Shown here: positions 38,734 to 53,641 of the stretch, in pieces
Position numbering within the stretch: the first letter of the stretch is position 1
Layout of the letters: the number at the start of each line of letters is the position of its first letter
NCBI RefSeq assembly: GCF_001899075.1
Contig: NZ_MKVA01000011.1
Coordinates: 620,001-684,000 of the forward strand
DNA length: 64,000 nucleotides
Direction: 5' to 3'
DNA from: Devosia sp. 67-54
Lineage (GTDB): Bacteria > Pseudomonadota > Alphaproteobacteria > Rhizobiales > Devosiaceae
Made by a program: the position numbers and the translations under genes
The notes under the pieces: model-generated
What the model saw: only the letters and a program-made list of their open reading frames with translations
The model's database searches: none
What the model was told of the DNA's origin: nothing

Positions 38734-41700
38734 TTGGGCAAGATCTTCATTTCGCATTCGTCGGCCAACAATGCCGAGGCGCTGGCCATCCACGACTGGC
38801 TGGCCGAGAACGGCTGGGGCGACGTCTTCCTCGATCTCGATCCGCGCCGCGGCCTCGTCGCCGGCGACCGCTGGCAGGCCGCCCTCAAGGCCGCCGCCGA
38901 ACAATGCGAGCTGATCCTCATCGTCGTCAGCCCGGAATGGGCCCGCTCGAAATGGTGCCTCGCCGAATTCCTGCTCGCCAAGCAGATGAACAAGCAGATC
39001 CTCGGCGTGGTGGCGAAGCCGACCCCCATCGCCGAACTGCCGGTCGAGCTCACCGCCGAATGGCAGCTCGTCGATCTGAGCGCCCCCGATCCGGGCTGGT
39101 CCACCACCATCTCGCCGCCGCGCTACGAGCCCGAAACCACGGTCAAATTCTCCGGCACCGGCCTTGCGCGCCTCGCCGCCGGGCTCGAAAAGGCCGGCCT
39201 CGACGCCACCAATTTCAACTGGCCGCCCGACAGCGACCCGCAGCGCGCCCCGTATCGCGGCCTCAAGCCGCTCGATGCCGACGATGCCGGCATCTTCTTC
39301 GGCCGCGACGGCGCTATCGTCCTCACCCTCGATGCGCTGCGCGGGCTCGAGGCCGCGGCGCCGCCGCGCATGCTGACCATTCTGGGCGCCTCGGGCGCCG
39401 GTAAATCGTCGTTCCTGCGCGCCGGCCTGCTGCCGCGCCTCCAGCGCGACAGCCGGCATTTCGCCGTGCTGCCGATCATCCGCCCCGAGCGCGCCGCGCT
39501 CAGCGGCGAGCATGGCTTTGCCGCCATGTTCGAGGCCGCGCTCAAGGCGCGCGGCATCACCCGCAACCGCGCCGACATCCGCGCCGCCGTCACCGCCGGC
39601 GCCGCTGCGGTGCGCCCGCTGCTGGCCACGCTCGCCGTCCCGCTCGACAGCGGCGACGGCGCCGCGCCCGCCACCCCGCCCACCCTCGTCATCGCCGTCG
39701 ACCAGGCCGAGGAGCTGCTTGGCGCCGACACCGCCGAGGCCGGCCCGTTCCTCACGCTGCTCGCCGATCTCGCGCGCTCCGACGATCCGGCCGTGCTCGT
39801 CATCTTCACCGTGCGCTCCGACAGTTTCGAGTCCTTGCAGTCGCGGCCCGAGCTCGCCGGCACGCAGCCGCATCACCTCGTCGACCTGCCGCCGGTGCCC
39901 GCCGGCTCCTATGGCGACATCATCCGCGGTCCCGCCCGCCGCATGAGCGCCGCCGGCCGCAAGCTGCTGGTCGAGGAAACGCTGGTCGATGCGCTGCTCG
40001 CCGACATCGAGCAGGGCGGCACCAAGGACGCGCTGCCGCTCCTCGCCTTCACGCTGGAACGGCTTTACACCGACTACGGTGCCGATGGCGATCTCCAGCT
40101 CGGCGAATACGAAAAACTCGGCCGCATCCGCGGCGCCATCGAGGCGGCGGTCGAGCAGGCGCTGGCTGCCGCCGACGGCAATCCCGCCATCCCGCGCGAC
40201 CGCGCCGCGCGCCTCGCGCTGCTGCGCCGCGGGCTCATCCCCTGGCTCGCCGGCATCGATCCCGAAACCGGCACGCCGCGCCGCCGCGTCGCCCGCCTCA
40301 GCGAGGTGCCCGCCGAGGCGCGCCCGCTGATCGAGCTGATGGTCAGCCAGCGCCTGCTCGCAACCGACATCGACAAGCCCACCGGCGAGCGCACCATCGA
40401 GCCGGCGCACGAGGCGCTGCTGCGCCAATGGGGCGCGCTCGACGGCTGGCTGGTCGAGGATTCCGCCGCTCTCGCCACCATCGAGGCGCTGCGCCGCGCC
40501 GCCACCGACTGGGACGCCAACGCCCGCGGTCCCGAATATCTGGTCCACACCGGCGCCCGCCTCGCTGCTGCCGGCGAGGCGGCGTCCGGCGACACATTCG
40601 CCGCCTATCTCACCTCCGTCGACCGCGCCTATCTCGACGCCGCCCGCGCCGCCGAGGATGCCGCGAAGCGCCGGGCCCGCGCGCTCCGCACCCGGCTGAC
40701 CGTCGCCGCCGCCATCGCCGGCGTGGTGCTCGTCGCCGGCCTCACCGCCGGATATTTCATCTACACCGCCGGCGAGGCGGCCAGGCGCGACGCCGCCGCG
40801 AGCTTCGCCACCGCGCAGGCCGAAGCCGCCCTCCGCGCCGGCCGCCCCGAGGATGCGGCCAAGGCGGCGCTCACCGCGCTCGACATCGCGCCCTCGACCG
40901 CCACCCGCACCGCCGCGCTCACCGCCGCCATGGCGGTGTCGCCCAACACCATCGCCACCGTGCCGGTCGCCGGCCGCGTCGCCGACACGCTCTGGCTCGA
41001 TCCCGATCATCTGCTGCTGCTCAATGCCGCCGGCACCGTCACCGCCGTCGATCTCGGCATGCGCAAGCTCGCTGCGCCGGCCAGCCTGCCCACGGGGCCG
41101 ATGCCCATCGCGCTGGCGCCGCGCGGCGCCGGCGAGGCCGAAATCATCTACGCCGACGGCAGCATCGGCGCGCTCGACGGCACGGTGATCGCCGCCGCGC
41201 CGCGCTTCGGCACCGACCGCGACGGCGAAATCCGTAACGTCGCGCCGGCCGCCGACGATGCCTTCGCGGCGCGCGCCGGCACCGCCCGGACCAGCGCCGA
41301 CGGCAAGCTCGTCGCCATGATCGGGCTTGCCGGCGACGTGCTCGTCCGCGACTGCCGCTCATTGCCCTGCGTCGATGCCCGGCTGGCCGCGCCCGACGCG
41401 GCCGGCGGCGCCGCGGCGCTGGCCGGCGCCCTGGCCGTGCGCCCCGACGGTGCCGGCTTCGCCGTCAATTGGTGGCCGGGCTTTATCGCCCTCTATGCCG
41501 ACGCCCAGGCGCCGCCCGATTTGCTGCCGCTGCCCCAGGGCGTGTCGACCAACGGCGTCGCCACCGGCATGGATTGGGGCGGCGACCGCATCGCCCTCAA
41601 CACCGATGCCGGCAAGGTGGTGCTGCTCGATCCGGCCGGCGCCGCCGCGCCCGTCGTCATCGAAGGCGGCACGCTGACCCCGGCGCTCGCCTGGTCGCCT

Positions 41701-42897
41701 GCCGCGCCGCTGCTGGCGCTGGTCTGCGACAACATCTCCGTCTGCCTCTACCGCCCCAGCGGCGCGCGCGTCGCGACCTTCGCCGGCCACACCGGCAAGA
41801 TCGGCGCCTTGCGCTGGAGCGCCGACGGCAGCGAGCTGGTCTCGGTCGCCCCCGGCGATCCGGTGCGCCTGTGGTCGCTCGATGCCGATCCGCAAATCAC
41901 CGCCCCCCGCACCACCGAAGCCTGGACGGCGCTCACCGCGCTCGCCGTCGAGCGGGCCGGCGGCCGCGTCGCTGCCGGCGACGAAACCGGCGCGCTCTGG
42001 CTGTGGACCGGCGACGGGCCGACACCGGGCAAGCTCGTTGTCCCCGACCTGCAGCGCAAGGTCACGTCCGTGGCCTGGCTCGGCGACGGCCGCCTCGCCG
42101 CCGTCTACGAGAACCGCGCCGTCGCCGTCTGGACTCCCGGCAAGCCGGCGCCCGACAAGCTGCTGACGCTCGACAATCTCAGCTTCTCGCGTGTCGCCGC
42201 GCTCAGCGGCGACATCCGCGCCGCCGTGCCGCTCAGCGACAAGACCATCCTCGTCCTCTCCGGCCCCGATCTGCGCGACGCCCGCATCCCCGCCGACGAT
42301 ATCGGCCTCGACCAATGGGGGCTTACTGCGGCGCCCGCCGCCAATGCCGCCTTCGTCTCCTATTCCGACGGCAGCATCCGCCGCCGCGACCTCGGCGCCG
42401 GCGGCGCCGGCACCACCATCTTCGATGCCAAGACCTCGCTCTGCGGCGCGCCCCCGACCACCGACAACAACGGCGCCAAGAGCCTCGACGTCAGCGCCGA
42501 CGGCAAATGGCTGGTGGCGACCCGCAGCGACGACCGCGTCATCGTCCACAATCTCGCCGATCCGGCGCAGCCGCTCTGCCTGGCGCTCGCCGCCCCCGAC
42601 AGTAAGACCGTGGCCTTATCGCCCGCCGGCACGCAGCTTGCCATCCTCAGCGCCACCGACCGGCTCTACGTCTTCGACCTGGCGCACCCCGACACCGCCA
42701 CCATCCTCGGCGCTCCGGCGGTGCCCGACAACTCGCCCGAGGCGATCGCCGCCGGCACCGCCCGCACCACCTCGTGGCTCGCCTGGCAGGACGAGCACAC
42801 GCTGCTGGTCGCCACCACCGCCGGCACGGTGAACGCCGTCAACCTCGACCCCGCGGCGTGGCGTGCCCGTGTGGACACCCTGAGCGTCACTCAATAG
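38734..42897 (+). CDS. TIR-nSTAND NTPase-transmembrane-WD40 protein
   Basis: A 1387-aa multidomain protein. Residues 1-110 are a TIR domain (KIFISHSSANNAEALAI) with the candidate NADase Glu78 in SKWCLAEF. From about residue 172 comes an nSTAND1-type NTPase (APYRGLKPLDADDAGIFFGR), with Walker A GASGAGKSS (218-226) and Walker B LVIAVDQAEEL (Asp323). One membrane helix follows near 654-678 (LTVAAAIAGVVLVAGLTAGYF) after the positive stretch AKRRARALRTRL, then WD40-like propeller repeats to the end (FAGHTGKIGALRWSADGSELVS). By the positive-inside rule the TIR/NTPase face the cytoplasm and the propeller the periplasm. The start is TTG at 38734 with a weak RBS. It is the likely sensor-effector of the locus. 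Confidence 0.88.
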   Translation: MGKIFISHSSANNAEALAIHDWLAENGWGDVFLDLDPRRGLVAGDRWQAALKAAAEQCELILIVVSPEWARSKWCLAEFLLAKQMNKQILGVVAKPTPIAELPVELTAEWQLVDLSAPDPGWSTTISPPRYEPETTVKFSGTGLARLAAGLEKAGLDATNFNWPPDSDPQRAPYRGLKPLDADDAGIFFGRDGAIVLTLDALRGLEAAAPPRMLTILGASGAGKSSFLRAGLLPRLQRDSRHFAVLPIIRPERAALSGEHGFAAMFEAALKARGITRNRADIRAAVTAGAAAVRPLLATLAVPLDSGDGAAPATPPTLVIAVDQAEELLGADTAEAGPFLTLLADLARSDDPAVLVIFTVRSDSFESLQSRPELAGTQPHHLVDLPPVPAGSYGDIIRGPARRMSAAGRKLLVEETLVDALLADIEQGGTKDALPLLAFTLERLYTDYGADGDLQLGEYEKLGRIRGAIEAAVEQALAAADGNPAIPRDRAARLALLRRGLIPWLAGIDPETGTPRRRVARLSEVPAEARPLIELMVSQRLLATDIDKPTGERTIEPAHEALLRQWGALDGWLVEDSAALATIEALRRAATDWDANARGPEYLVHTGARLAAAGEAASGDTFAAYLTSVDRAYLDAARAAEDAAKRRARALRTRLTVAAAIAGVVLVAGLTAGYFIYTAGEAARRDAAASFATAQAEAALRAGRPEDAAKAALTALDIAPSTATRTAALTAAMAVSPNTIATVPVAGRVADTLWLDPDHLLLLNAAGTVTAVDLGMRKLAAPASLPTGPMPIALAPRGAGEAEIIYADGSIGALDGTVIAAAPRFGTDRDGEIRNVAPAADDAFAARAGTARTSADGKLVAMIGLAGDVLVRDCRSLPCVDARLAAPDAAGGAAALAGALAVRPDGAGFAVNWWPGFIALYADAQAPPDLLPLPQGVSTNGVATGMDWGGDRIALNTDAGKVVLLDPAGAAAPVVIEGGTLTPALAWSPAAPLLALVCDNISVCLYRPSGARVATFAGHTGKIGALRWSADGSELVSVAPGDPVRLWSLDADPQITAPRTTEAWTALTALAVERAGGRVAAGDETGALWLWTGDGPTPGKLVVPDLQRKVTSVAWLGDGRLAAVYENRAVAVWTPGKPAPDKLLTLDNLSFSRVAALSGDIRAAVPLSDKTILVLSGPDLRDARIPADDIGLDQWGLTAAPAANAAFVSYSDGSIRRRDLGAGGAGTTIFDAKTSLCGAPPTTDNNGAKSLDVSADGKWLVATRSDDRVIVHNLADPAQPLCLALAAPDSKTVALSPAGTQLAILSATDRLYVFDLAHPDTATILGAPAVPDNSPEAIAAGTARTTSWLAWQDEHTLLVATTAGTVNAVNLDPAAWRARVDTLSVTQ

Positions 42898-42926
42898 TGT
42901 CGTTACAAACCCTGGGGGAGGGGACG

Positions 42927-44678
42927 GTGCATCGACGACGACCATATTCGGCATGGCTGCTGGCCCTGGCGCTGTCGACCAGCCTTTGTGCGCCTCTCGC
43001 GCCGGCTTTCGCCGCCACCGTCGAGGCGCTGCCGACGGCGCCTGCCGCCCCCCTCGCCGTGCCCGGCGCCGAAGCGGGCGCCTTCCGCACCTGGGTGCAG
43101 CTCGTCTGGAATCCCGCCACCCGCCGCCTCGAGCGGTTGAGCTTCACCGCCTGGGACCCCATCCCCTCGCTCGGCCTCGAGCTGCAATGGCTCCCCGACG
43201 ATCCCGCCGGCAACCGCGCCGGCCCACTCGACGGCCGCGGCACGCTCAGCTTCCGGAAGCCCGGCGCCGCCTCCTACGATGCCGCCGCCACCCTGGCGCA
43301 ATATCGCGGCACCCTGCGCGACGGCCGCGCCGAAGGCTTCGGCGAATTCCTCGACCGCTCCGGCTTCTCCTATGCCGGCGGCTGGCATCTGGGCCTGATG
43401 GAGGGCGAGGGCCGCCTCGTCGCCGCCAATGGCGACGAATATGTCGGCGCCTTCAAGGCCGGCCGCCGCGACGGCAAGGGCGTGTTCACCGACGCCACCG
43501 GCCAGATCTTCACCGGCCGCTTCGTCAACGGCGCCGAGGCCGACGGCGTCACCCTGCAGCGCACCGCCGGCACCTATCCCGTCTATGCCGACCTGCGCAT
43601 CGGCGTCGTCACCGAGCGCCGCCCGCACAATTACGACCTCGGCTTCGATCCGATGAGCTACACCAGCAAGGCAGATGGCGACGCGCTCGACATCCTGCCC
43701 GACGACCAGCGCCTGCTCGACGTCTGGCACGGCGCCGTGCCCATCACCATGACCGACGCCGAGATCGCCGCCTTCGACGATCCCTCCACCACCCCGAGCT
43801 TCCTCGGCGCCTATGAGCGCTTCGATCCGCTGTCGCTGGTGTTCGAGCTCGAAAACAGCTCCACCGAGACCGTCTCGGTGGTCGGCGGCTTCCTCGATGT
43901 CGGCAACAGCCGTCGCGACGGCGAGCCGGCGGTGCAGGTGCGGCCGTTCCCGCGCGATCCGTGCTCGGGCGCCGTCGATTTCCTGCCCAAATTCTTCATC
44001 GACAATTTCGGCTGGTCGGCGATGGAGAACGCCTCGCTCGAGATCACCGCCGGCTCCATCGACGGCCGCAGTGAGGGCACGCCGCTCAGCGTGCCGCTGC
44101 CCGCCATCACCACCACCGCCGAGGCCAACGTCGCCGCGCAGATGACGGCGCTGGGCCTCGACACCGGCTTCCTGTCGGCCAACAAGCTGCGCTGCACCGA
44201 CCCCAACGACGAGCGTCTCTGCCTCGCCGAGCTCAGGCAGTCGGGCCGCTTCGGCAAGCTCGCCGACTACATCTCGCTCGACTACAGCACCGTGGTCACC
44301 GCCGTCCTCGGCAGCATCGACTATGACTGGACCACCTCCGACGGCGCCGTCAGCCACAAGAGCTCGCCATTCTCGGTCACCATCCCCATCGCCTCGGTGG
44401 CCAACGATGCCGAATGCGGCGAGGGCGGCGAGATCATCCCGGTGCGCCACGATCCGTTCCAGTTCCACCTCGACCAGCAGAACTACCGCATGTCGCTGCC
44501 CTTCGCCGGCGACGTCGCGCCCGGCTTCACCTCGCGCTGGCGCATCGAGCTCAGCGCTGCTGAAACGTCGCTCCACGATTTCCAGATCGTGCTGCTCCTG
44601 AGCGACGGCCGCCAGCTCGCCTCCCGCCCCATCCACCTCACCTACTTCATGCCGCCAAAGCACGACGTTCCGAAGTAG
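42927..44678 (+). CDS. Exported MORN-repeat protein
   Basis: A 583-aa protein with a signal peptide (VHRRRPYSAWLLALALSTSLCAPLAPAFA) and about four MORN repeats near residues 124-215 (YRGTLRDGRAEGFGEF, YAGGWHLGLMEGEGRL, YVGAFKAGRRDGKGVF, FTGRFVNGAEADGV). The C-terminal two-thirds match no family I recognise and contain scattered Cys residues, compatible with periplasmic disulfides. The GTG start at 42927 has GGGGGAGGGGAC upstream. It follows the TIR-STAND gene by 29 bp on the same strand and is probably co-expressed. MORN repeats often bind lipids or act as spacers; here an envelope-facing partner role is inferred. Confidence 0.8.
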   Translation: MHRRRPYSAWLLALALSTSLCAPLAPAFAATVEALPTAPAAPLAVPGAEAGAFRTWVQLVWNPATRRLERLSFTAWDPIPSLGLELQWLPDDPAGNRAGPLDGRGTLSFRKPGAASYDAAATLAQYRGTLRDGRAEGFGEFLDRSGFSYAGGWHLGLMEGEGRLVAANGDEYVGAFKAGRRDGKGVFTDATGQIFTGRFVNGAEADGVTLQRTAGTYPVYADLRIGVVTERRPHNYDLGFDPMSYTSKADGDALDILPDDQRLLDVWHGAVPITMTDAEIAAFDDPSTTPSFLGAYERFDPLSLVFELENSSTETVSVVGGFLDVGNSRRDGEPAVQVRPFPRDPCSGAVDFLPKFFIDNFGWSAMENASLEITAGSIDGRSEGTPLSVPLPAITTTAEANVAAQMTALGLDTGFLSANKLRCTDPNDERLCLAELRQSGRFGKLADYISLDYSTVVTAVLGSIDYDWTTSDGAVSHKSSPFSVTIPIASVANDAECGEGGEIIPVRHDPFQFHLDQQNYRMSLPFAGDVAPGFTSRWRIELSAAETSLHDFQIVLLLSDGRQLASRPIHLTYFMPPKHDVPK

Positions 44679-44702
44679 GTATCAGCCAAGGCCGTATCGC
44701 CG

Positions 44703-44833
44703 GTGGTTGTGGCCCCCACCCTCGGTCCCTCCCCGCAAGGGGGAGGGAGGCGCTGGAACCGCATTCTCAAAGGTTTCAGTCAGGCTCCCCTCCCCCTTGC
44801 GGGGAGGGGACGGGGGTGGGGGCCATAACCACT
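44703..44833. repeat. Inverted pair of class A repeats
   Basis: Two copies of the class A palindrome (core CCCTCCCCCTTGCGGGGAGG, tail GGGGGTGGGGGC) face each other, at about 44703-44748 (minus) and 44786-44833 (plus). They sit between the convergent MORN and MEMO-CapA genes. The arrangement resembles a BIME and can form a large cruciform; it may terminate both transcripts. Confidence 0.75.
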
Positions 44834-44884
44834 AGCTTTGCGTTCCCCGACTGCCGATTGCCGACGGCCGGCATACCGCACGCC

Positions 44885-46555
44885 CTACTCCCGTCCCAGC
44901 TCGAACAGATTGGGCATCGGCAGCAGCCGCGCCGCCACCGTGCCCTGCTTGAACACCCGCACCTCCAGCAGCGCGCTCGAGCCGCGCGGCGAGCTCTGGT
45001 CGAACAGGAAATTGCCGAGCGAGAACACCATCTGCCCGGCGCCGCCCGCCACCGGCTGCACCGCTTGCGCGGCCTGGTGCGAATGCCCGCCCACCACCAG
45101 CGACACGCCGCAGCGCATGAGCTTTTGCGCGATGTCCCGCTCGCGGGCCGTCGCGGCGGCGGTGTATTCCTCGCCCCAATGCACCATCGCGACCAGCGGC
45201 GGCGCCGCGCTGAGCCGGCACACCCAGTCGAGGTCGCGAGCATCGGCGATGGCGTCGCCCACCAGCCTGCCGCCGACGAAATTCAGCGCCAGCAGGCGGA
45301 ACGCGCCCATGTCGGTCACCGTGCCGTGCTCGAGCGGCCGGATTCCCAGCCGGCCGAGCTGCGCCACCGTTTCGGCCCGCCCCTCCGGCCCCAGGTCGTT
45401 GGCGTGGTTGTTGGCGAGATCGGCGGCGACGACGTTGAGCGCTGCCAGCATCGGCGCTGCGTCCTCGGTGGTCATCAGATGTGCGTCGCGCCCGACGCCG
45501 GTCACCGGCCCGTCCAGCAGTACGCCCTCGAGATTGATCGCCAGCGGCGCCCCGCGCGTCACCGCCAGCACCGCATCGCGGATCGCCGTCCACGACTTCG
45601 GCTGCTGCAGCAGCGGCAGGAAATACCGCCCCAGCAGCACGTCGCCGGCAAAGAACAGCCGCGTCGTGTCGGCGTAGGAAAACACCGTTCCAGCCGCCGC
45701 GTCCTTGAGCCACGCCGCCACCACATAGCTCGTGGTCGAGTCCGGCCCGGTGCCGTAAGTCGCCGAATTGCCGTTGGCCAGCACCACCGGCGCGGCGCCG
45801 AACACGTCGCGCTGCAGCGCCATCTGCAGATAGGTCGCGGCCTTGCTGTCCATGTGCGCCGGCTGCAGCAGCGGCACGACCGCCTCGGGGTCGCCGGCAT
45901 CGAGCACCGCGATCGATTCCTGGTCGCGTGCGATCGCTTCCGGCAGCGGCCGGTAGTGCGAAAAATCCGTCGATTGCACGATCAGCGTATCGGCCGTCGC
46001 CAGCGGCTTGAGCAGGGCCGCCATCGCCCGCCAGTCGGCCGGCGTGGCGTTGATCGAGGCCAGCACCGGAATCACCTCGGCGCCGGGGAAGAAAAGCGCG
46101 ATGAACGGCGCCTCCGCCATCAGCCCGTGCTCGTAGTCCACCGCCGGCAGCACCTGCACCAGCCTGGTGTCGGCCGCCAGCGCCGCCACCCCCGCCGCGT
46201 CCGAGGGCACGACGCCCAGCACCGAGCGCAGCGCCTCGCGCGTTGTGCCGAACGGCGCCTGCACCTTCCGGAAATGGTCGGGCGAGATCAGGATGATGCG
46301 GCGATAGTGCCCCGCCGAGGCCGCCCAGAAGCCGCGCGCGATCAGCTCCGCCGCCAGCAGATGGTGCGGCACGGTGATGCCGCTCACCCCCGCCGGCGGC
46401 ACGAAGTCCGGCCGCTCTCTGGCGATCGCCCTGAGGATCGGCGCCGGGTCCTGCGCCGGCAGGAACGGATTGTCCGCGCCCGCCGCCACCGCGCTGCCGC
46501 AAAGCCCCACGAGCAGCCACAGCATCGCCCTCACGCCGCCCGTAAACCGTGCCAC
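44885..46555 (-). CDS. Exported MEMO-like and CapA-like fusion protein
   Basis: A 556-aa protein with a short signal peptide (ARFTGGVRAMLWLLVGLCGSAVAAGA). Residues from about 50 to 280 resemble the MEMO1/AmmeMemoRadiSam-B family: VPHHLLAAELIARGFW, ILISPDHFRK, DYEHGLMAEAPFIALFFPGAEVIPVL, VQSTDFSHY. Residues from about 295 to the end are a CapA/PgsA-type metallophosphoesterase: FFAGDVLLGRYF, LAINLEGVL, ADLANNHANDLGPEG, AMVHWGEEY, VGGHSHQAAQ, VFSLGNFLFD. The GTG start has GGGAG 6 nt upstream. It is divergent from the RyR gene with a 62-bp shared promoter region. The fusion suggests a periplasmic hydrolase acting on a polymer or nucleotide-like substrate. Confidence 0.78.
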   Translation of the reverse strand: MARFTGGVRAMLWLLVGLCGSAVAAGADNPFLPAQDPAPILRAIARERPDFVPPAGVSGITVPHHLLAAELIARGFWAASAGHYRRIILISPDHFRKVQAPFGTTREALRSVLGVVPSDAAGVAALAADTRLVQVLPAVDYEHGLMAEAPFIALFFPGAEVIPVLASINATPADWRAMAALLKPLATADTLIVQSTDFSHYRPLPEAIARDQESIAVLDAGDPEAVVPLLQPAHMDSKAATYLQMALQRDVFGAAPVVLANGNSATYGTGPDSTTSYVVAAWLKDAAAGTVFSYADTTRLFFAGDVLLGRYFLPLLQQPKSWTAIRDAVLAVTRGAPLAINLEGVLLDGPVTGVGRDAHLMTTEDAAPMLAALNVVAADLANNHANDLGPEGRAETVAQLGRLGIRPLEHGTVTDMGAFRLLALNFVGGRLVGDAIADARDLDWVCRLSAAPPLVAMVHWGEEYTAAATARERDIAQKLMRCGVSLVVGGHSHQAAQAVQPVAGGAGQMVFSLGNFLFDQSSPRGSSALLEVRVFKQGTVAARLLPMPNLFELGRE

Positions 46556-46617
46556 CCGTCGCTCCCTTACAACCGCGCGCGCACCATGGCATGCTGTTGC
46601 GGGATTGGGGAAATTCA

Positions 46618-48630
46618 GTGAACGCTCGCCGCCTCGCGCTCTACATCGCCGTGCTGGTGCTGCTGGCGCTGCTCGGCCTCGGCCTTGCGCTCTGGGGCCT
46701 CGTCGCCTGCGCGCCGCCGCCGCTGCCGGGCGACGAGCTGTGGACCTGGCGGCAGCAACTGGGCGCCGCGTTCGGCCTCGTGACCCGCTTCGGCACCGCC
46801 GCTTGCTTCACCGCCGATCCGGCGGGCAGCGCCGCTTTGTGGATCGGCGCCCGCATCGCCGGCATCCTGCTCGTCGCTCTGGCGCTGATGGTGCTGTGGG
46901 AACTGGTCGGCCGCGAGCTGCGCCGCGCCTGGTTCCGCGCCCGCGGCGGCCATCTGCTGCTCGCCGGCGCCGCCGACGACGTGGCCGGCCTTGCCCACGC
47001 CCACCGCGCCGCCTCCGTCTATCTCGCGCCCGACCGTACCGCGCTGGCCGACTTCGCCCGCCGCCATCCCTTCGCCGAAGCGGCGCCGCTCGCCGCCCGC
47101 GCCGTGCCGCGCCAGCTCGCCCGCTTCGGCGCGCCGGCGGCGCGGCTGGTCGCCGCCGTCACCCACAACGATCTCGCCAATGTCGCTTTGGCCGAATCCG
47201 CGCTCGACCGGCCGGGCCGCGCCGAAATCCTGCTGCGCCTGGAGCAGGCCTCGGTGCGGGCGCTGTCGTCGCACCGCCTGCGCCAGCGCGCCGAGCGGCA
47301 GGGGCGCGATCTCGCCATCGTCTCGCGCACCGCGCTGCAGACCCGCCGCGGCATGGCCGCCGCCATGTCCGGCCGCTACACGCTCGACGGCGCGCCGCGT
47401 CCCCACATCGCGCTCTGCGGCACCGGCGAGGGCTTGCAGGCGGCGACGCTCGAAGTGGTGCGCCAGGGGTTCGGGCTCGATACCGACCGGCCGCTGGTCT
47501 CGATCCTGCGCACCGGCATGGCCGATTTCGCCGCCGGCGCCCTCGACCGCCTGCAGTCGAGCGAAGCTGCCGAGGTGCAGGTCACCACCGCCATCGCCGC
47601 CTCGGCCGGCAGCCTCGACCGCGCCATCACCGGCCTCGTGCTCGACGCGCCGCCGCTGCTCGCCATCCACTGCCTCGGCGCCACGCCGGAGGAAGCCGAG
47701 GCCATCGCCCTCGAATGGGAGAGCGTGCTGCTGGCGCTGCACCAGCCGGTGCCGCCGATCATCGCCTACGGCGCTTCCGACCGGCCGCTCGGCGCAACCG
47801 GCATGATCCGCGTCGCCGTGGCCCCCGATCTCGCCGAGGCCCGCGCCCTGGCCCGGCTGATGGATGCGCGTGCCGTCGCCGTGCATGCCGAATTCCTGCG
47901 CGCCCAGCGCGAGGCCCGCGGCGACAAATTCGGCAGCGCCCCGGCCGAGGCCGACTGGGCGCACCTGCCCGAGCCGTTCCGCGACGACAACCGCAACGTC
48001 GCCGACCAGATGGATTTCAAGCTCGCCAGCATCTTCATGCTCGCCGCGCCCGGCGCCGGCGGCGTGGCGCCGACGCCGGACGAAACCGAGCGGCTCGCCC
48101 GCATCGCCCACGCCCGCTGGTGGGCATCGAAGGCGCTGGGCGGCTGGCGCTATGGTCCGAAGCGCGACGATCGCGCCCAGCTCCATCCCGACATGCAGCC
48201 CTACGACCGGCTCGGCGAGCCGGTGAAGCAGAAGGACCGCGACGAGGTGGCGAGCCTGCCGCGCCTCGCCCAGCTCGCCGGCGAGGCGCTGCGCCGCGAA
48301 CGCCGCGTGGCCGTTCCGCGGCCGCTCGCGCCCGCCGCCCTCGCAACCCTCGCCGCCCATCTGCGCGCCACGCCCAAGGATCAGGTGCCGGTCGCCGTCC
48401 TACCGCTCGACACGGCCGCCATGGTGGAGATGGCGGCCGCGCTGCTGGCCGACGGCATCGCCATCGAGGCGGTGCTGGGCGCCGGCGCCGACTATGCCGT
48501 GCCGGGTCTCGCCGCGGTGCTGCGGCGCGCCTGGCGCATCCATGTGGCCTCCGGCCCCGCTGCCGCTGCGCTCGCCGCGCGCGCGTCCGAGGCCGCCAAC
48601 GACAAGGGAGCGATCGGTGCGTCTGCGTGA
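46618..48630 (+). CDS. Membrane protein with TrkA-N-like region and C-terminal RyR domain
   Basis: A 670-aa protein. Two hydrophobic helices near the N-terminus (LALYIAVLVLLALLGLGLALWGLVA and IAGILLVALALMVLWELVG) anchor it. The cytoplasmic part starts with a Rossmann-like segment (GGHLLLAGAADDVAGLAHAH) similar to TrkA-N regions, with a second nucleotide-binding-like block around HIALCGTGEGLQAATLEVV. Near residues 488-545 is a RyR domain (IAHARWWASKALGGWRYGP, HPDMQPYDRL). A C-terminal SLOG/Rossmann-like region may follow. The GTG at 46618 has GGGGAA 5 nt upstream. RyR domains in bacteria occur with NTPase and TIR conflict proteins. It overlaps the caspase gene by 14 bp. Confidence 0.75.
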   Translation: MNARRLALYIAVLVLLALLGLGLALWGLVACAPPPLPGDELWTWRQQLGAAFGLVTRFGTAACFTADPAGSAALWIGARIAGILLVALALMVLWELVGRELRRAWFRARGGHLLLAGAADDVAGLAHAHRAASVYLAPDRTALADFARRHPFAEAAPLAARAVPRQLARFGAPAARLVAAVTHNDLANVALAESALDRPGRAEILLRLEQASVRALSSHRLRQRAERQGRDLAIVSRTALQTRRGMAAAMSGRYTLDGAPRPHIALCGTGEGLQAATLEVVRQGFGLDTDRPLVSILRTGMADFAAGALDRLQSSEAAEVQVTTAIAASAGSLDRAITGLVLDAPPLLAIHCLGATPEEAEAIALEWESVLLALHQPVPPIIAYGASDRPLGATGMIRVAVAPDLAEARALARLMDARAVAVHAEFLRAQREARGDKFGSAPAEADWAHLPEPFRDDNRNVADQMDFKLASIFMLAAPGAGGVAPTPDETERLARIAHARWWASKALGGWRYGPKRDDRAQLHPDMQPYDRLGEPVKQKDRDEVASLPRLAQLAGEALRRERRVAVPRPLAPAALATLAAHLRATPKDQVPVAVLPLDTAAMVEMAAALLADGIAIEAVLGAGADYAVPGLAAVLRRAWRIHVASGPAAAALAARASEAANDKGAIGASA

Positions 48631-50362
48631 TCTTCTGGCTGCCCTGGTGCTCGCCGCGGCGCTGCTCGCCGCCGGCTCCGCCGCCGCCATCACCCCGGTC
48701 GCCGCCGACGCCGCGCGCGCCGCCGTGCGCCAGCAGATCGTGCAGCAGCTCGGCCCCAGCCATTCCTACGCGCTGCTCATCGGCATCTCCGAGTTCGACA
48801 ATGCCGGCTGGCACGATCTGAGCGGCGTCGGCCCCGAGATCGAGAAGGTGGGCGCCGCGCTCACCGCGCAGGGCTTCACCATCGTCCCCGAAAGCCACAG
48901 CGGCCGCATGGACCACGCCACGCTCAAGGCGGCGATCGAGCGCTTCTTTTCGACCTACGGCCGGCGCGCCGAGGACCGGCTCGTGGTCTATGTCGCAACG
49001 CACGGCTATTCCGATCCGTCGCGCCCCGACGCCGACGGCTTCCTCGTCGCCTCCGACGCCGGCGTGCCCAGCAACGGCACGCTGCCCAACGGCTATTCGG
49101 TGCACGAGCTCAGCGCCGCGCTCACCTCCATCGCCGCCCAGCACGTGTTCCTGTTCTTCGATTCGTGCTTTTCGGGCGCCATGCTGCCCGAGCCGACCCG
49201 CGCCAACGACACCATGCTGGCGTCCAAGCCGGTGCTGGCGCTGAGCCCGGAGACCGCGGCCTGGACGCGCGACCTCCTCGCCCACAATGCCCGCCTGGTG
49301 CTCACCGCCGGCAACGCCAGCCAGACCGTGCCCGATGTCGACAACCCGTTCGCCGCCGCCGTCGTCGATGCGCTCGGCGGCGCCGCCGACACCGATGGCG
49401 ACGGGCTGATCCTGGGCACCGAGATCGCGCAATTCGTGCGCGGCCGCGTCGCCCGCGCCACCCGCCTCGCCGGCCACGCCAACGATCCGGTGTTCGCCGT
49501 GCTGCCCAAGCTCGTGCCGCCGGTCGAGCCGCGCCCCGATCTGCCGGCCGGCGACAAGATCGACTACGCGCTGCAGGGCGATTTCATCTTCCTCAGCCCC
49601 GCCGGTCCGAAGCCCGCCGCCGAGGCCGGCCTCAGCGCGCAGCAGGCGCTGCTCAGGCAGAAGACGGCGCGGCTGGGCGCCGGCCAGTTCCTCGCCTGCG
49701 TCGATTGCCCGACCATGGTCACCCAGCCCGCCGCGCCGAAGCTGGCGCTGGCCTCGACCGAGATCACCTACGCGCAGTGGGATGCCTGCTATCGCGAAAT
49801 GGGCTGCCACCGTTATCTCAGCGACGACGGCTTCGGCCGCGGCGACCGCCCCGCCGGCAACGTCACCTGGCTCGACGCGCTCGAATACGTCACCTGGCTC
49901 GGCAGCAAGGCCGCCGCCGATGCGCCCTGCGACGACTACCGCCTGCCCACCGCCGCCGAATGGACCGCCGCCGCCCTCTATTCCACCGCCGGCCCCGTCG
50001 CCTGGGCCAGCGCCGTCGCCGACGGCCAGCCCGTCTGCTGGGGCTGCGGCGCCGGCGACGACGGCACCGCTGCGCTGCGCGTCGCTTCCGCGCCGGCCAA
50101 CGCCTCCGGCCTCTACGACATGCTGGGCAATCTCTGGGAATGGGTCGCCGATGGCGCCGATCCGTCCGCCCCGGCCTGCGATCTCACGGCGCTGCGGCAG
50201 TCCGGCCGGTGCACGCCCGGCCGCGTCATGGGCGGCTCCTACGCCACCCGCGCCGAGGCGCTCCCCGCCATCGCCGCCGGCGGCACCGCGCCGCGCACCG
50301 ACAACGCCCGCCCCTGGTCCTCCCCCACCCTCGGCCTCCGTGTCGCCTGCGATCTGAAATAG
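48617..50362 (+). CDS. Exported caspase-like peptidase fused to FGE-sulfatase domain
   Basis: A 581-aa protein with a signal peptide (RLRDLLAALVLAAALLAAGSAAA). A C14 caspase-like domain follows (SYALLIGISEFDNAGWHDLSG, catalytic His near 126 in VYVATHGYSD, catalytic Cys near 183 in LFFDSCFSGAML). After about residue 370 comes an FGE-sulfatase/SUMF1-type domain (TEITYAQWDACYREMG, YRLPTAAEWTAAAL, GLYDMLGNLWEWVADG, RVMGGSYATR). The Cys pair needed for formylglycine formation is not seen in the GGSYATRAEA region, so this domain is more likely a binding module. The GTG start has GGGAG 6 nt upstream and overlaps the RyR gene. It is a possible protease executioner of the locus. Confidence 0.84.
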   Translation: MRLRDLLAALVLAAALLAAGSAAAITPVAADAARAAVRQQIVQQLGPSHSYALLIGISEFDNAGWHDLSGVGPEIEKVGAALTAQGFTIVPESHSGRMDHATLKAAIERFFSTYGRRAEDRLVVYVATHGYSDPSRPDADGFLVASDAGVPSNGTLPNGYSVHELSAALTSIAAQHVFLFFDSCFSGAMLPEPTRANDTMLASKPVLALSPETAAWTRDLLAHNARLVLTAGNASQTVPDVDNPFAAAVVDALGGAADTDGDGLILGTEIAQFVRGRVARATRLAGHANDPVFAVLPKLVPPVEPRPDLPAGDKIDYALQGDFIFLSPAGPKPAAEAGLSAQQALLRQKTARLGAGQFLACVDCPTMVTQPAAPKLALASTEITYAQWDACYREMGCHRYLSDDGFGRGDRPAGNVTWLDALEYVTWLGSKAAADAPCDDYRLPTAAEWTAAALYSTAGPVAWASAVADGQPVCWGCGAGDDGTAALRVASAPANASGLYDMLGNLWEWVADGADPSAPACDLTALRQSGRCTPGRVMGGSYATRAEALPAIAAGGTAPRTDNARPWSSPTLGLRVACDLK

Positions 50363-50513: not shown

Positions 50514-50563
50514 GGCTCCATCGCCCCCCTCCCCCTTGCGGGGAGGGGCCGGGGGTGGGGGCC
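50514..50563. repeat. Class A repeat copy
   Basis: A copy of the class A element, virtually identical over about 50 bp to the one at 53592-53641, including the leading GCGGCTCCATCGCCCCCCTC. It lies 14 bp beyond the uxuB stop and can form the CCCTCCCC/GGGGAGGG hairpin. Confidence 0.75.
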
Positions 50564-53593: not shown

Positions 53594-53641
53594 CTCCATC
53601 GCCCCCCTCCCCCTTGCGGGGAGGGGCCGGGGGTGGGGGCC
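53592..53641. repeat. Class A repeat copy
   Basis: A near-identical partner of the element at 50514-50563, in the same orientation. It lies downstream of the AtzE-like gene's stop (53681, minus strand) and upstream of the tandem repeat. Confidence 0.75.

What the first reader, a model, noticed from the sequence alone, without database searches (positions are those of the whole stretch)
38734..50362. Candidate envelope-associated conflict/signalling locus: TIR-STAND-WD40, MORN, MEMO-CapA, RyR and caspase-FGE
Five adjacent genes combine domains that recur in bacterial immune and programmed-death systems: TIR with an intact candidate NADase Glu, a STAND NTPase, RyR, caspase and FGE-sulfatase. 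All five proteins appear membrane-anchored or exported. This suggests a periplasmic WD40/MORN sensor side and a cytoplasmic TIR effector side. The combination with MORN and MEMO-CapA is not one I can match to a named system. That the genes act together is inference from proximity, strand and short gaps or overlaps.
Basis: partly seen in the sequence, partly recalled or inferred. Interest (0 to 1): 0.85.

Follow-up and report, generated by a model that had tools for sequence, protein, structure and literature searches.

The report
TIR–RyR envelope-spanning bacterial immune-type locus
A soil bacterium (Devosia) carries five neighbouring genes that look like an alarm system built across its cell envelope, in which an enzyme that probably makes a small messenger molecule sits beside a membrane protein carrying the very domain (RyR) recently shown to bind that kind of messenger, plus a caspase-type protease and other proteins outside the inner membrane.

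Summary
The five genes are real, in Devosia (Alphaproteobacteria), and every domain call holds: TIR-nSTAND1-TM-WD40, MORN, MEMO-CapA, 2TM-RCK-like-RyR, caspase-FGE. One correction: MEMO-CapA is on the minus strand, so there are three transcription units. The whole cassette is present in 5 of 19 Devosia genomes and essentially absent from the rest. Across 398 order genomes MORN and MEMO-CapA go together (6 of 7), mostly beside a WD40 partner carrying TIR-STAND or caspase. The strongest new point is a TIR-RyR link. Gene 4's RyR domain keeps all four residues with which phage RyDEP binds 2'/3'cADPR, and RyR membrane proteins lie next to TIR-(STAND)-WD40 genes in four families; chance p about 3e-5, excluding this genome. 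Best reading: periplasmic WD40/MORN/MEMO-CapA side, STAND switch, TIR making an ADPR-type messenger, RyR membrane receptor, periplasmic caspase-FGE output. Relatives place the module on a conjugative plasmid beside a candidate defence system. Messenger, direction of signalling and anti-phage function are inferred; nothing was assayed. The FGE domain lacks the catalytic cysteines. New variant of the TIR/STAND immune kind, with an unusual receptor and envelope-facing half.

The parts
38734..42897 (+). Gene 1: TIR - nSTAND1 NTPase - TM - WD40 (1387 aa, TTG start)
   Evidence: 64-75% identical in four other Devosia genomes
38743..39084 (+). TIR domain (aa 4-116); candidate catalytic Glu78 at 38965-38967, motif SxWCxAE
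   Evidence: E78 invariant in 7 aligned proteins
39250..40530 (+). nSTAND1 NTPase (aa 173-599); Walker A GASGAGKSS (218-226) and Walker B DQxEE (323-327) intact
40696..40752 (+). Transmembrane helix (aa 655-673), positive residues on the N-side, so WD40 predicted periplasmic
40801..42894 (+). WD40 / beta-propeller region
42927..44678 (+). Gene 2: exported MORN-repeat protein with C-terminal beta-rich (Ig-like) domains
   Evidence: AlphaFold model pLDDT 77 and Foldseek
43269..43571 (+). MORN repeats (approximate extent)
44885..46555 (-). Gene 3: exported MEMO-CapA fusion (AmmeMemoSam_B/LigB-like + PGA_cap metallophosphatase-like); start GTG 46555 or ATG 46525
   Evidence: candidate metal ligands H64,H65,D93,H94,D197,H200,D305,N383,H384,H459,H491,H493 invariant over 6 relatives
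46556..46617 (.). Short divergent intergenic/promoter region between gene 3 and gene 4
   Evidence: shared control is inference
46618..48630 (+). Gene 4: 2-TM, RCK/TrkA-N-like, RyR-domain membrane protein (GTG start)
   Evidence: hhalign to RyR-TrkA_N relatives 99.9% over residues 45-568; TrkA_N scored by Pfam in relatives
48085..48276 (+). RyR domain (PF02026); H498, W501, H523, D540 match RyDEP H75, W78, H100, D117
48617..50362 (+). Gene 5: exported caspase-FGE protein, overlaps gene 4 by 14 bp
48761..49489 (+). Caspase (Peptidase_C14) domain; His129 / Cys184 dyad invariant
49718..50347 (+). FGE-sulfatase-like domain without the two catalytic Cys (GGSYATRAEAL)

Best explanation
An envelope-spanning TIR/STAND conflict (immune-type) system with an RyR receptor. 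SHOWN by sequence: domain order, membrane topology by hydropathy, intact catalytic motifs of TIR, STAND, caspase, MEMO and CapA, conserved RyR ligand residues, and recurrent co-location. INFERRED steps: (1) the periplasmic WD40 propeller of gene 1, with MORN-Ig protein 2 and MEMO-CapA enzyme 3, reports on an envelope event such as phage adsorption, damage or an altered surface polymer; (2) this releases the cytoplasmic nSTAND1 switch to oligomerise; (3) the clustered TIR domains turn NAD+ into an ADP-ribose-type messenger (cADPR isomer or similar); (4) the RyR domain of gene 4, on a 2-TM RCK-like membrane protein, binds that messenger; (5) binding opens or reshapes the membrane protein, by ion leak or by coupling across the membrane to the co-transcribed periplasmic caspase-FGE, which cleaves envelope proteins and stops or kills the cell. 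FGE acts as a non-catalytic binding domain.
For: Cassette all-or-none in Devosia: 5 of 19 genomes, 59-77% protein identity, different flanks. MORN + MEMO-CapA adjacent in 6 of 7 of 398 order genomes. TIR-nSTAND1-TM-WD40 + MORN-type + MEMO-CapA also in Hyphomicrobiales MAGs L067, L098, Bauldia L105, G257 and a R. leguminosarum conjugative plasmid. RyR next to TIR: G257 (same locus), G328 (operon, 31-bp gap, TIR E=7.5e-17), G556 (TIR-TM-WD40 plus an FGE with a lipobox-like leader); 3 of 10 non-own RyR genomes, chance p about 2.8e-5. RyR next to DUF4062-type NADase genes in G287 and G624. RyR ligand residues H/W/H/D identical to RyDEP, which binds and cleaves TIR-made 2'/3'cADPR (PMC13232231). 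TM tracks MORN/MEMO-CapA. Defence-gene neighbours in relatives.
Against: No assay. No phage or NAD+ data. Flanks in Devosia are metabolic genes, not a defence island. In Mesorhizobium the MORN/MEMO-CapA module sits at a stable chromosomal place with WD40-caspase and trypsins and without TIR or RyR in the stretch seen, so a house function of that half is possible. Several RyR-RCK proteins lie with patatin or SLATT partners rather than TIR. The caspase is exported while the TIR is cytoplasmic, so a signal must cross the membrane by an unshown route. The AlphaFold model of gene 4 was too poor (pLDDT 49) to show a pore. RyR relatives of RyDEP may bind, cleave or do neither (PMC13232231).
Confidence: 0.45

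Rival explanations
1. The TIR is itself the executioner (NAD+ depletion), and the RyR protein is a brake or clean-up factor that hydrolyses or sequesters cADPR-type products, as phage RyDEP does; caspase-FGE is a separate periplasmic arm.
For: Gene 4 keeps the RyDEP catalytic dyad His/Asp (H498/D540) as well as binding residues W501/H523; RyDEP cleaves 2'/3'cADPR (PMC13232231).
Against: The paper reports the ligand residues conserved in animal RyRs too, and most phage homologues tested bind without cleaving, so the residues do not prove catalysis; the RyR is built into a 2-TM RCK-like protein, an odd place for a soluble-signal hydrolase; RyR-RCK also lies with patatin and SLATT, which look like outputs.
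Confidence: 0.2
2. Two independent systems lie side by side: module A (genes 1-3: WD40/MORN/MEMO-CapA with TIR-STAND) and module B (RyR + caspase-FGE).
For: Outside Devosia module A is usually without RyR and RyR occurs without module A. Gene 3 separates them on the other strand. RyR/MEMO-CapA co-occurrence excluding own genome is not significant by presence alone (p=0.16).
Against: Both modules are together in one locus in G257, another family, with different module B partners. TIR-RyR linkage recurs without module A in G328 and G556, the latter with an exported-looking FGE. All-or-none retention in five Devosia genomes with changed flanks.
Confidence: 0.2
3. Not immunity: an envelope homeostasis or developmental programme (surface polymer control, regulated lysis), with MEMO-CapA as a house enzyme and caspase/WD40 as protease regulation.
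For: MEMO-CapA exists beyond this context, next to DUF3160 in Deltaproteobacteria and a Verrucomicrobium; Mesorhizobium keeps the module at one stable chromosomal site over many species; Devosia flanks are metabolic.
Against: Patchy in the genus (5 of 19) and order (7 of 398); conjugative plasmid copy beside PADLOC candidate system PDC-M01; TIR, STAND, RyR, patatin, CHAT, TPR-S partners are those of known conflict systems.
Confidence: 0.15

Closest known systems
Thoeris (TIR ThsB + ThsA), especially the TM-macro type (PMC11204291)
TIR-activated caspase-like immunity (Rousset et al. 2025, known here only as a citation in PMC13174449)
   Same: TIR and caspase-type protease encoded together.
   Different: Caspase here is predicted exported and fused to FGE, so it cannot be activated directly by a cytosolic messenger; a membrane relay is needed.
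Phage RyDEP / PF02026 RyR-domain proteins (PMC13232231)
   Same: Same domain family; H, W, H, D ligand residues all conserved.
   Different: RyDEP is a small soluble phage anti-defence enzyme (relatives are sponges); gene 4 is a host membrane protein encoded beside a TIR gene.
STAND/caspase/trypsin conflict systems of multicellular bacteria, incl. EACC1/EACC2 and nSTAND1 (PMC7159879, PMC8195603) and Swarozyc DUF4062 (PMC13174449)
   Same: STAND NTPases with WD40 or other sensor repeats, TIR-like effectors, caspases, APAF-1-like logic.
   Different: A text search for RyR in PMC7159879 and PMC13174449 gave no hit, and for MORN in PMC7159879 and PMC8195603 none; EACC1 caspase model not passed (62 vs 140 bits).
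Prokaryotic metacaspase-FGE and metacaspase-WD40 proteins (PMC3501461)
   Same: Same fusions are on record (FGE-sulfatase in 33 and WD40 in 73 of 671 prokaryotic caspase homologues).
   Different: No genomic association with TIR/RyR/MORN/MEMO-CapA in the passages read.

Membership tests
Thoeris | TIR protein with catalytic Glu | tested here: met
   TIR_2 E=9.5e-15, Glu78 invariant; ThsB models only weak, best 4e-5
Thoeris | ThsA effector: SIR2-SLOG or TM-macro | tested here: not met
   no SIR2, SLOG or macro domain in any of the five proteins
Thoeris | TIR makes cADPR-type/base-exchange messenger and gives phage defence | not testable with these tools
   needs biochemistry and plating
TIR-caspase (caspase-type Thoeris) | caspase activated by TIR product in the cytosol | tested here: not met
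   gene 5 has an N-terminal signal-like segment in window and three orthologues, so predicted exported
nSTAND1 NTPases | Pfam nSTAND1 with Walker A/B | tested here: met
   228 bits vs 27 cut-off; GASGAGKSS and DQAEE conserved
RyR-domain (PF02026) | profile above cut-off and ligand residues H, W, H, D | tested here: met
   39.6 vs 27.4 bits; H498, W501, H523, D540
RCK/TrkA-N channel-like proteins | 2 TM + TrkA_N with pore selectivity motif | tested here: inconclusive
   2 TM and profile homology to TrkA_N-RyR relatives; no TVGYG-like motif seen; structure model unusable
Prokaryotic caspase homologues (Peptidase_C14) | profile plus His/Cys dyad | tested here: met
   28 vs 21.4 bits; H129, C184 invariant in four orthologues
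EACC1-associated caspase (NF047832) | score above curated cut-off | tested here: not met
   62 vs 140 bits
Formylglycine-generating enzyme | two copper-binding Cys near the C-terminus (established FGE chemistry, own knowledge) | tested here: not met
   fold profile met (81 bits) but sequence is GGSYATRAEAL, no Cys at the site, in four orthologues
AmmeMemoSam_B / CapA | TIGR04336 and PGA_cap profiles, conserved metal ligands | tested here: met
   71.9 vs 26 bits; 102 vs 27 bits; His/Asp invariant

The most novel reading that the evidence does not exclude
The first bacterial immune-type receptor in which an RyR domain on an RCK-like membrane protein reads the cyclic-ADP-ribose-type messenger of a partner TIR, relaying a cytoplasmic STAND/TIR alarm to a periplasmic caspase: a bacterial parallel of the long-disputed cADPR-to-ryanodine-receptor axis of animals, in a system class that senses and acts at the envelope.
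Probability: 0.3. Interest if true: 0.92.

Novelty: new variant of a known kind. Interest (0 to 1): 0.76.

Why it matters
If true it gives TIR signalling a new receptor family (RyR) on the host side, would fit with phages carrying RyR-domain sponges, and offers a small bacterial system in which to test directly whether RyR domains are gated by cADPR-type messengers, an open question in animal calcium signalling. It would also extend TIR/STAND immunity to sensing and acting at the bacterial envelope, with a conserved exported core (MORN-Ig + MEMO-CapA + WD40) whose enzymes have no known role there.

Tried and rejected
Single operon of five genes: rejected, gene 3 is on the minus strand. FGE as active sulfatase-modifying enzyme: rejected, no catalytic Cys. 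EACC1 caspase system: below cut-off. Gene 5 caspase as close orthologue of the Mesorhizobium WD40-caspase: no significant blastp match (best E=2.4), so the functional parallel is only by domain. RyR gene on plasmids: no match; RyR-RCK in viral contigs: none. RNA families or tRNA-linked integration: none in the window. Structure of gene 4: AlphaFold pLDDT 49 with three sequences, not used. RyR with MEMO-CapA by presence alone: significant only with own genome (p=0.016; 0.16 without), so not relied on. Literature for MORN/CapA/metacaspase or MEMO/CapA systems: nothing relevant found. Burroughs et al. 2015 on nucleotide-centric conflict systems, which I recall as covering RyR domains, was not found as a readable paper in the library, so priority of an RyR-TIR link could not be checked.
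Full report
WHAT IS THERE. The window lies in a Devosia genome; the closest relatives fetched are Devosia nanyangense and Devosia sp. 66-22 MAGs. Five long ORFs occupy 38734-50362, all with coding-type codon usage. Pfam gives TIR_2 + nSTAND1 + WD40; MORN; Memo + PGA_cap; RyR; Peptidase_C14 + FGE-sulfatase. NCBIfam calls gene 3 AmmeMemoSam_B-like. PADLOC has only weak ThsB and caspase matches. Its picture of one run of genes is not: gene 3 is on the minus strand. The layout is g1>g2>, <g3, g4>g5>, with a 29-bp g1-g2 gap, a 14-bp g4/g5 overlap and a divergent g3/g4 gap of 62-92 bp depending on the gene 3 start. Flanking genes look metabolic (names from reading the translations, not from a profile search): RraA-like and LacI-like on the left, mannitol dehydrogenase-like and uronate isomerase-like on the right.

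IS IT A UNIT? Each protein was searched in 101 related genomes. All five genes occur in 5 of 19 Devosia genomes (G000, G004, G005 on broken contigs, G006, G018) and no full-length homologue of genes 2-5 occurs in the other 14; G008 has a partial TIR/STAND match only. Order and strands are the same in G004, G006 and G018. The flanks are not: G018 shares only the right side, G006 keeps part of the right side, and G004 and G006 share a different left side. The block thus keeps together while its surroundings change. Protein identities are 59-77% and pN/pS is 0.45-0.74, rough figures because the third codon position is very GC-rich; all frames are open.

BEYOND THE GENUS: MODULE A. A scan of bacterial and archaeal genomes with a MEMO-CapA alignment and neighbourhood clustering show that MEMO-CapA and the MORN protein travel together (24 of about 37 of the closest loci), usually convergent. 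In 398 genomes of the order, 7 have MEMO-CapA and 6 of these have the full-length MORN protein beside it, none elsewhere (Fisher p=1e-12; some of these genomes contributed rows to the profiles). The third partner is a propeller protein in most loci where the contig allows a view (L094 is an exception): TIR-nSTAND1-TM-WD40 in Devosia, L067, L098, L105, G257 and a Rhizobium leguminosarum conjugative plasmid; nSTAND1-TM-WD40 without TIR in L075 and G394; or an exported WD40-caspase fusion of about 1000 aa in 19 Mesorhizobium, Rhodobacteraceae and related loci, in Mesorhizobium with a second caspase and trypsins. On the R. leguminosarum plasmid the MORN repeats are missing and only the C-terminal domain is kept (A2 positions 236-595), so that beta-rich, Ig-like part (AlphaFold pLDDT 77) is the constant element. 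In Deltaproteobacteria and a Verrucomicrobium MEMO-CapA stands beside DUF3160 instead.

TOPOLOGY. In every propeller protein checked that sits with MORN/MEMO-CapA (four Devosia, G097, G257, L098, L075, L158) and in the plasmid copy, a TM helix with basic residues on its N-side separates STAND from WD40. The TIR-nSTAND1-WD40 of G328, which has no MORN or MEMO-CapA, has none. One other version without MORN, in G096, does have a TM, so the rule is not strict. This supports a periplasmic WD40 that meets the exported MORN and MEMO-CapA proteins.

BEYOND THE GENUS: MODULE B AND THE TIR-RyR LINK. RyR domains are rare: 12 of 398 order genomes and 7 of 270 class genomes. Gene 4 belongs to a family of 2-TM, TrkA_N-like, RyR proteins (hhalign 99.9% over residues 45-568; TrkA_N scored in relatives). 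In G257 (another family) the RyR gene is in the same locus as TIR-nSTAND1-TM-WD40, MORN and MEMO-CapA, with a CBASS-type patatin and a TPR-S/cyclase protein. In G328 the RyR gene lies 31 bp before a TIR-nSTAND1-WD40 gene on the same strand. In G556 a TIR-TM-WD40 gene and an FGE gene with a lipobox-like leader lie beside the RyR gene. In G287 and G624 the neighbour is a STAND-type protein with DUF4062, reported as a TIR-like NADase (PMC13174449); the DUF4062 score in G287 is weak. Counting TIR_2 genes in the RyR genomes, 3 of 10 genomes other than our own have one within 11 kb; the chance value is about 2.8e-5 (the 11-kb span was chosen after seeing the loci). Other RyR-RCK genes have patatin or SLATT partners.

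WHY RyR MATTERS. A 2026 preprint (PMC13232231; [quoted passage not shown] six of eight homologues tested bind, none of them cleaves. The window's RyR domain matches that very protein (48% over 44 aa) and all four residues are identical in gene 4 (H498, W501, H523, D540) and in its three Devosia orthologues; three are identical in all relatives aligned, and the Asp in all but two. A TIR gene beside a gene for a membrane protein with an ADPR-messenger-binding domain is the pattern expected of a sender and its receiver.

MECHANISM. Shown by sequence: domain order, intact catalytic motifs (TIR Glu78; Walker A and B; caspase His129/Cys184; MEMO and CapA metal ligands), predicted topology, RyR residues and recurrent co-location. 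Inferred: an envelope event is sensed at the periplasmic WD40/MORN/MEMO-CapA side; the STAND switch oligomerises; TIR makes an ADPR-type messenger; the RyR-RCK protein receives it; the output is an ion leak or activation of the co-transcribed periplasmic caspase-FGE. The FGE domain lacks the two catalytic cysteines and is best read as a binding domain. The direction of signalling (outside-in or inside-out) is not settled.

IMMUNITY OR NOT. For: patchy distribution; the plasmid copy lies beside both genes of PADLOC candidate system PDC-M01 (E=7e-240 and 5e-113); the G394 copy lies near a ThsB-like TIR, a caspase, a GajB-like helicase and a Type III methyltransferase. Against: metabolic flanks in Devosia and a fixed chromosomal site in Mesorhizobium. 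I put about two thirds on a conflict function for the Devosia locus as a whole and 0.45 on the specific pathway given.

NOVELTY. TIR-STAND-WD40, caspase-FGE and caspase-WD40 proteins are known kinds (PMC3501461, PMC7159879, PMC8195603). It is not Thoeris as defined: no ThsA of either type. It works like TM-macro Thoeris (PMC11204291), with RyR in place of macro. I found no paper in the library that joins TIR with host RyR, MORN or MEMO-CapA, but older work on nucleotide-centred systems could not be read here. Hence: new variant of a known kind, with a plausible case for more.

Noticed in passing
window 44726-44748, 44787-44809, 50526-50548, 53604-53626: Four copies of a palindromic repeat CCCCTCCCCCTTGCGGGGAGGGG in intergenic DNA (none expected by chance); two lie in the gap between genes 2 and 3 and one just after gene 5, like REP-type elements or terminators.
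   Followed up: partly
L185 (Rhizobium leguminosarum plasmid pRL31b3), 2609-5148 and 8836-19539: MEMO-CapA, a MORN-less form of the MORN partner, TIR-nSTAND1-TM-WD40 and CHAT-TPR-S on a conjugative plasmid, close to a PADLOC candidate defence pair PDC-M01A/B.
   Followed up: partly
L158 344-1721: A small ThsB-like TIR gene next to a 332-aa caspase gene, close to a nSTAND1-WD40/MORN/MEMO-CapA locus: looks like a TIR-caspase pair.
   Followed up: no
L182 6556-11875: RyR membrane protein, TIR-TM-WD40 with further C-terminal TM segments, and a lipobox-bearing FGE protein together: a compact relative of the Devosia arrangement.
   Followed up: partly
L180 5967-12536: RyR-TPR-S-cyclase-like protein, a small stand-alone RyR protein and a DUF4062-NTPase together; a possible nucleotide-signalling system of its own.
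   Followed up: no
L068, L074, L087, L099: MEMO-CapA genes of Deltaproteobacteria and a Verrucomicrobium lie beside a DUF3160-type gene instead of MORN, a second and unexplained partnership.
   Followed up: no
L094 8144-9490: A TROVE-VWA (Ro60-like) gene lies near MEMO-CapA and MORN in Enterovirga.
   Followed up: no
L167 7532-9868 and L168 7370-9760 (Devosia G004, G006): Second, distant RyR-RCK paralogues in the same two Devosia genomes, next to a LacI-like regulator (read from sequence) and not near a TIR match.
   Followed up: partly
G000:C5:339632, G000:C9:295714, G000:C3:67543: Three further TIR_2 genes in the window's own genome; the frame around one (C9) has a stop inside.
   Followed up: no
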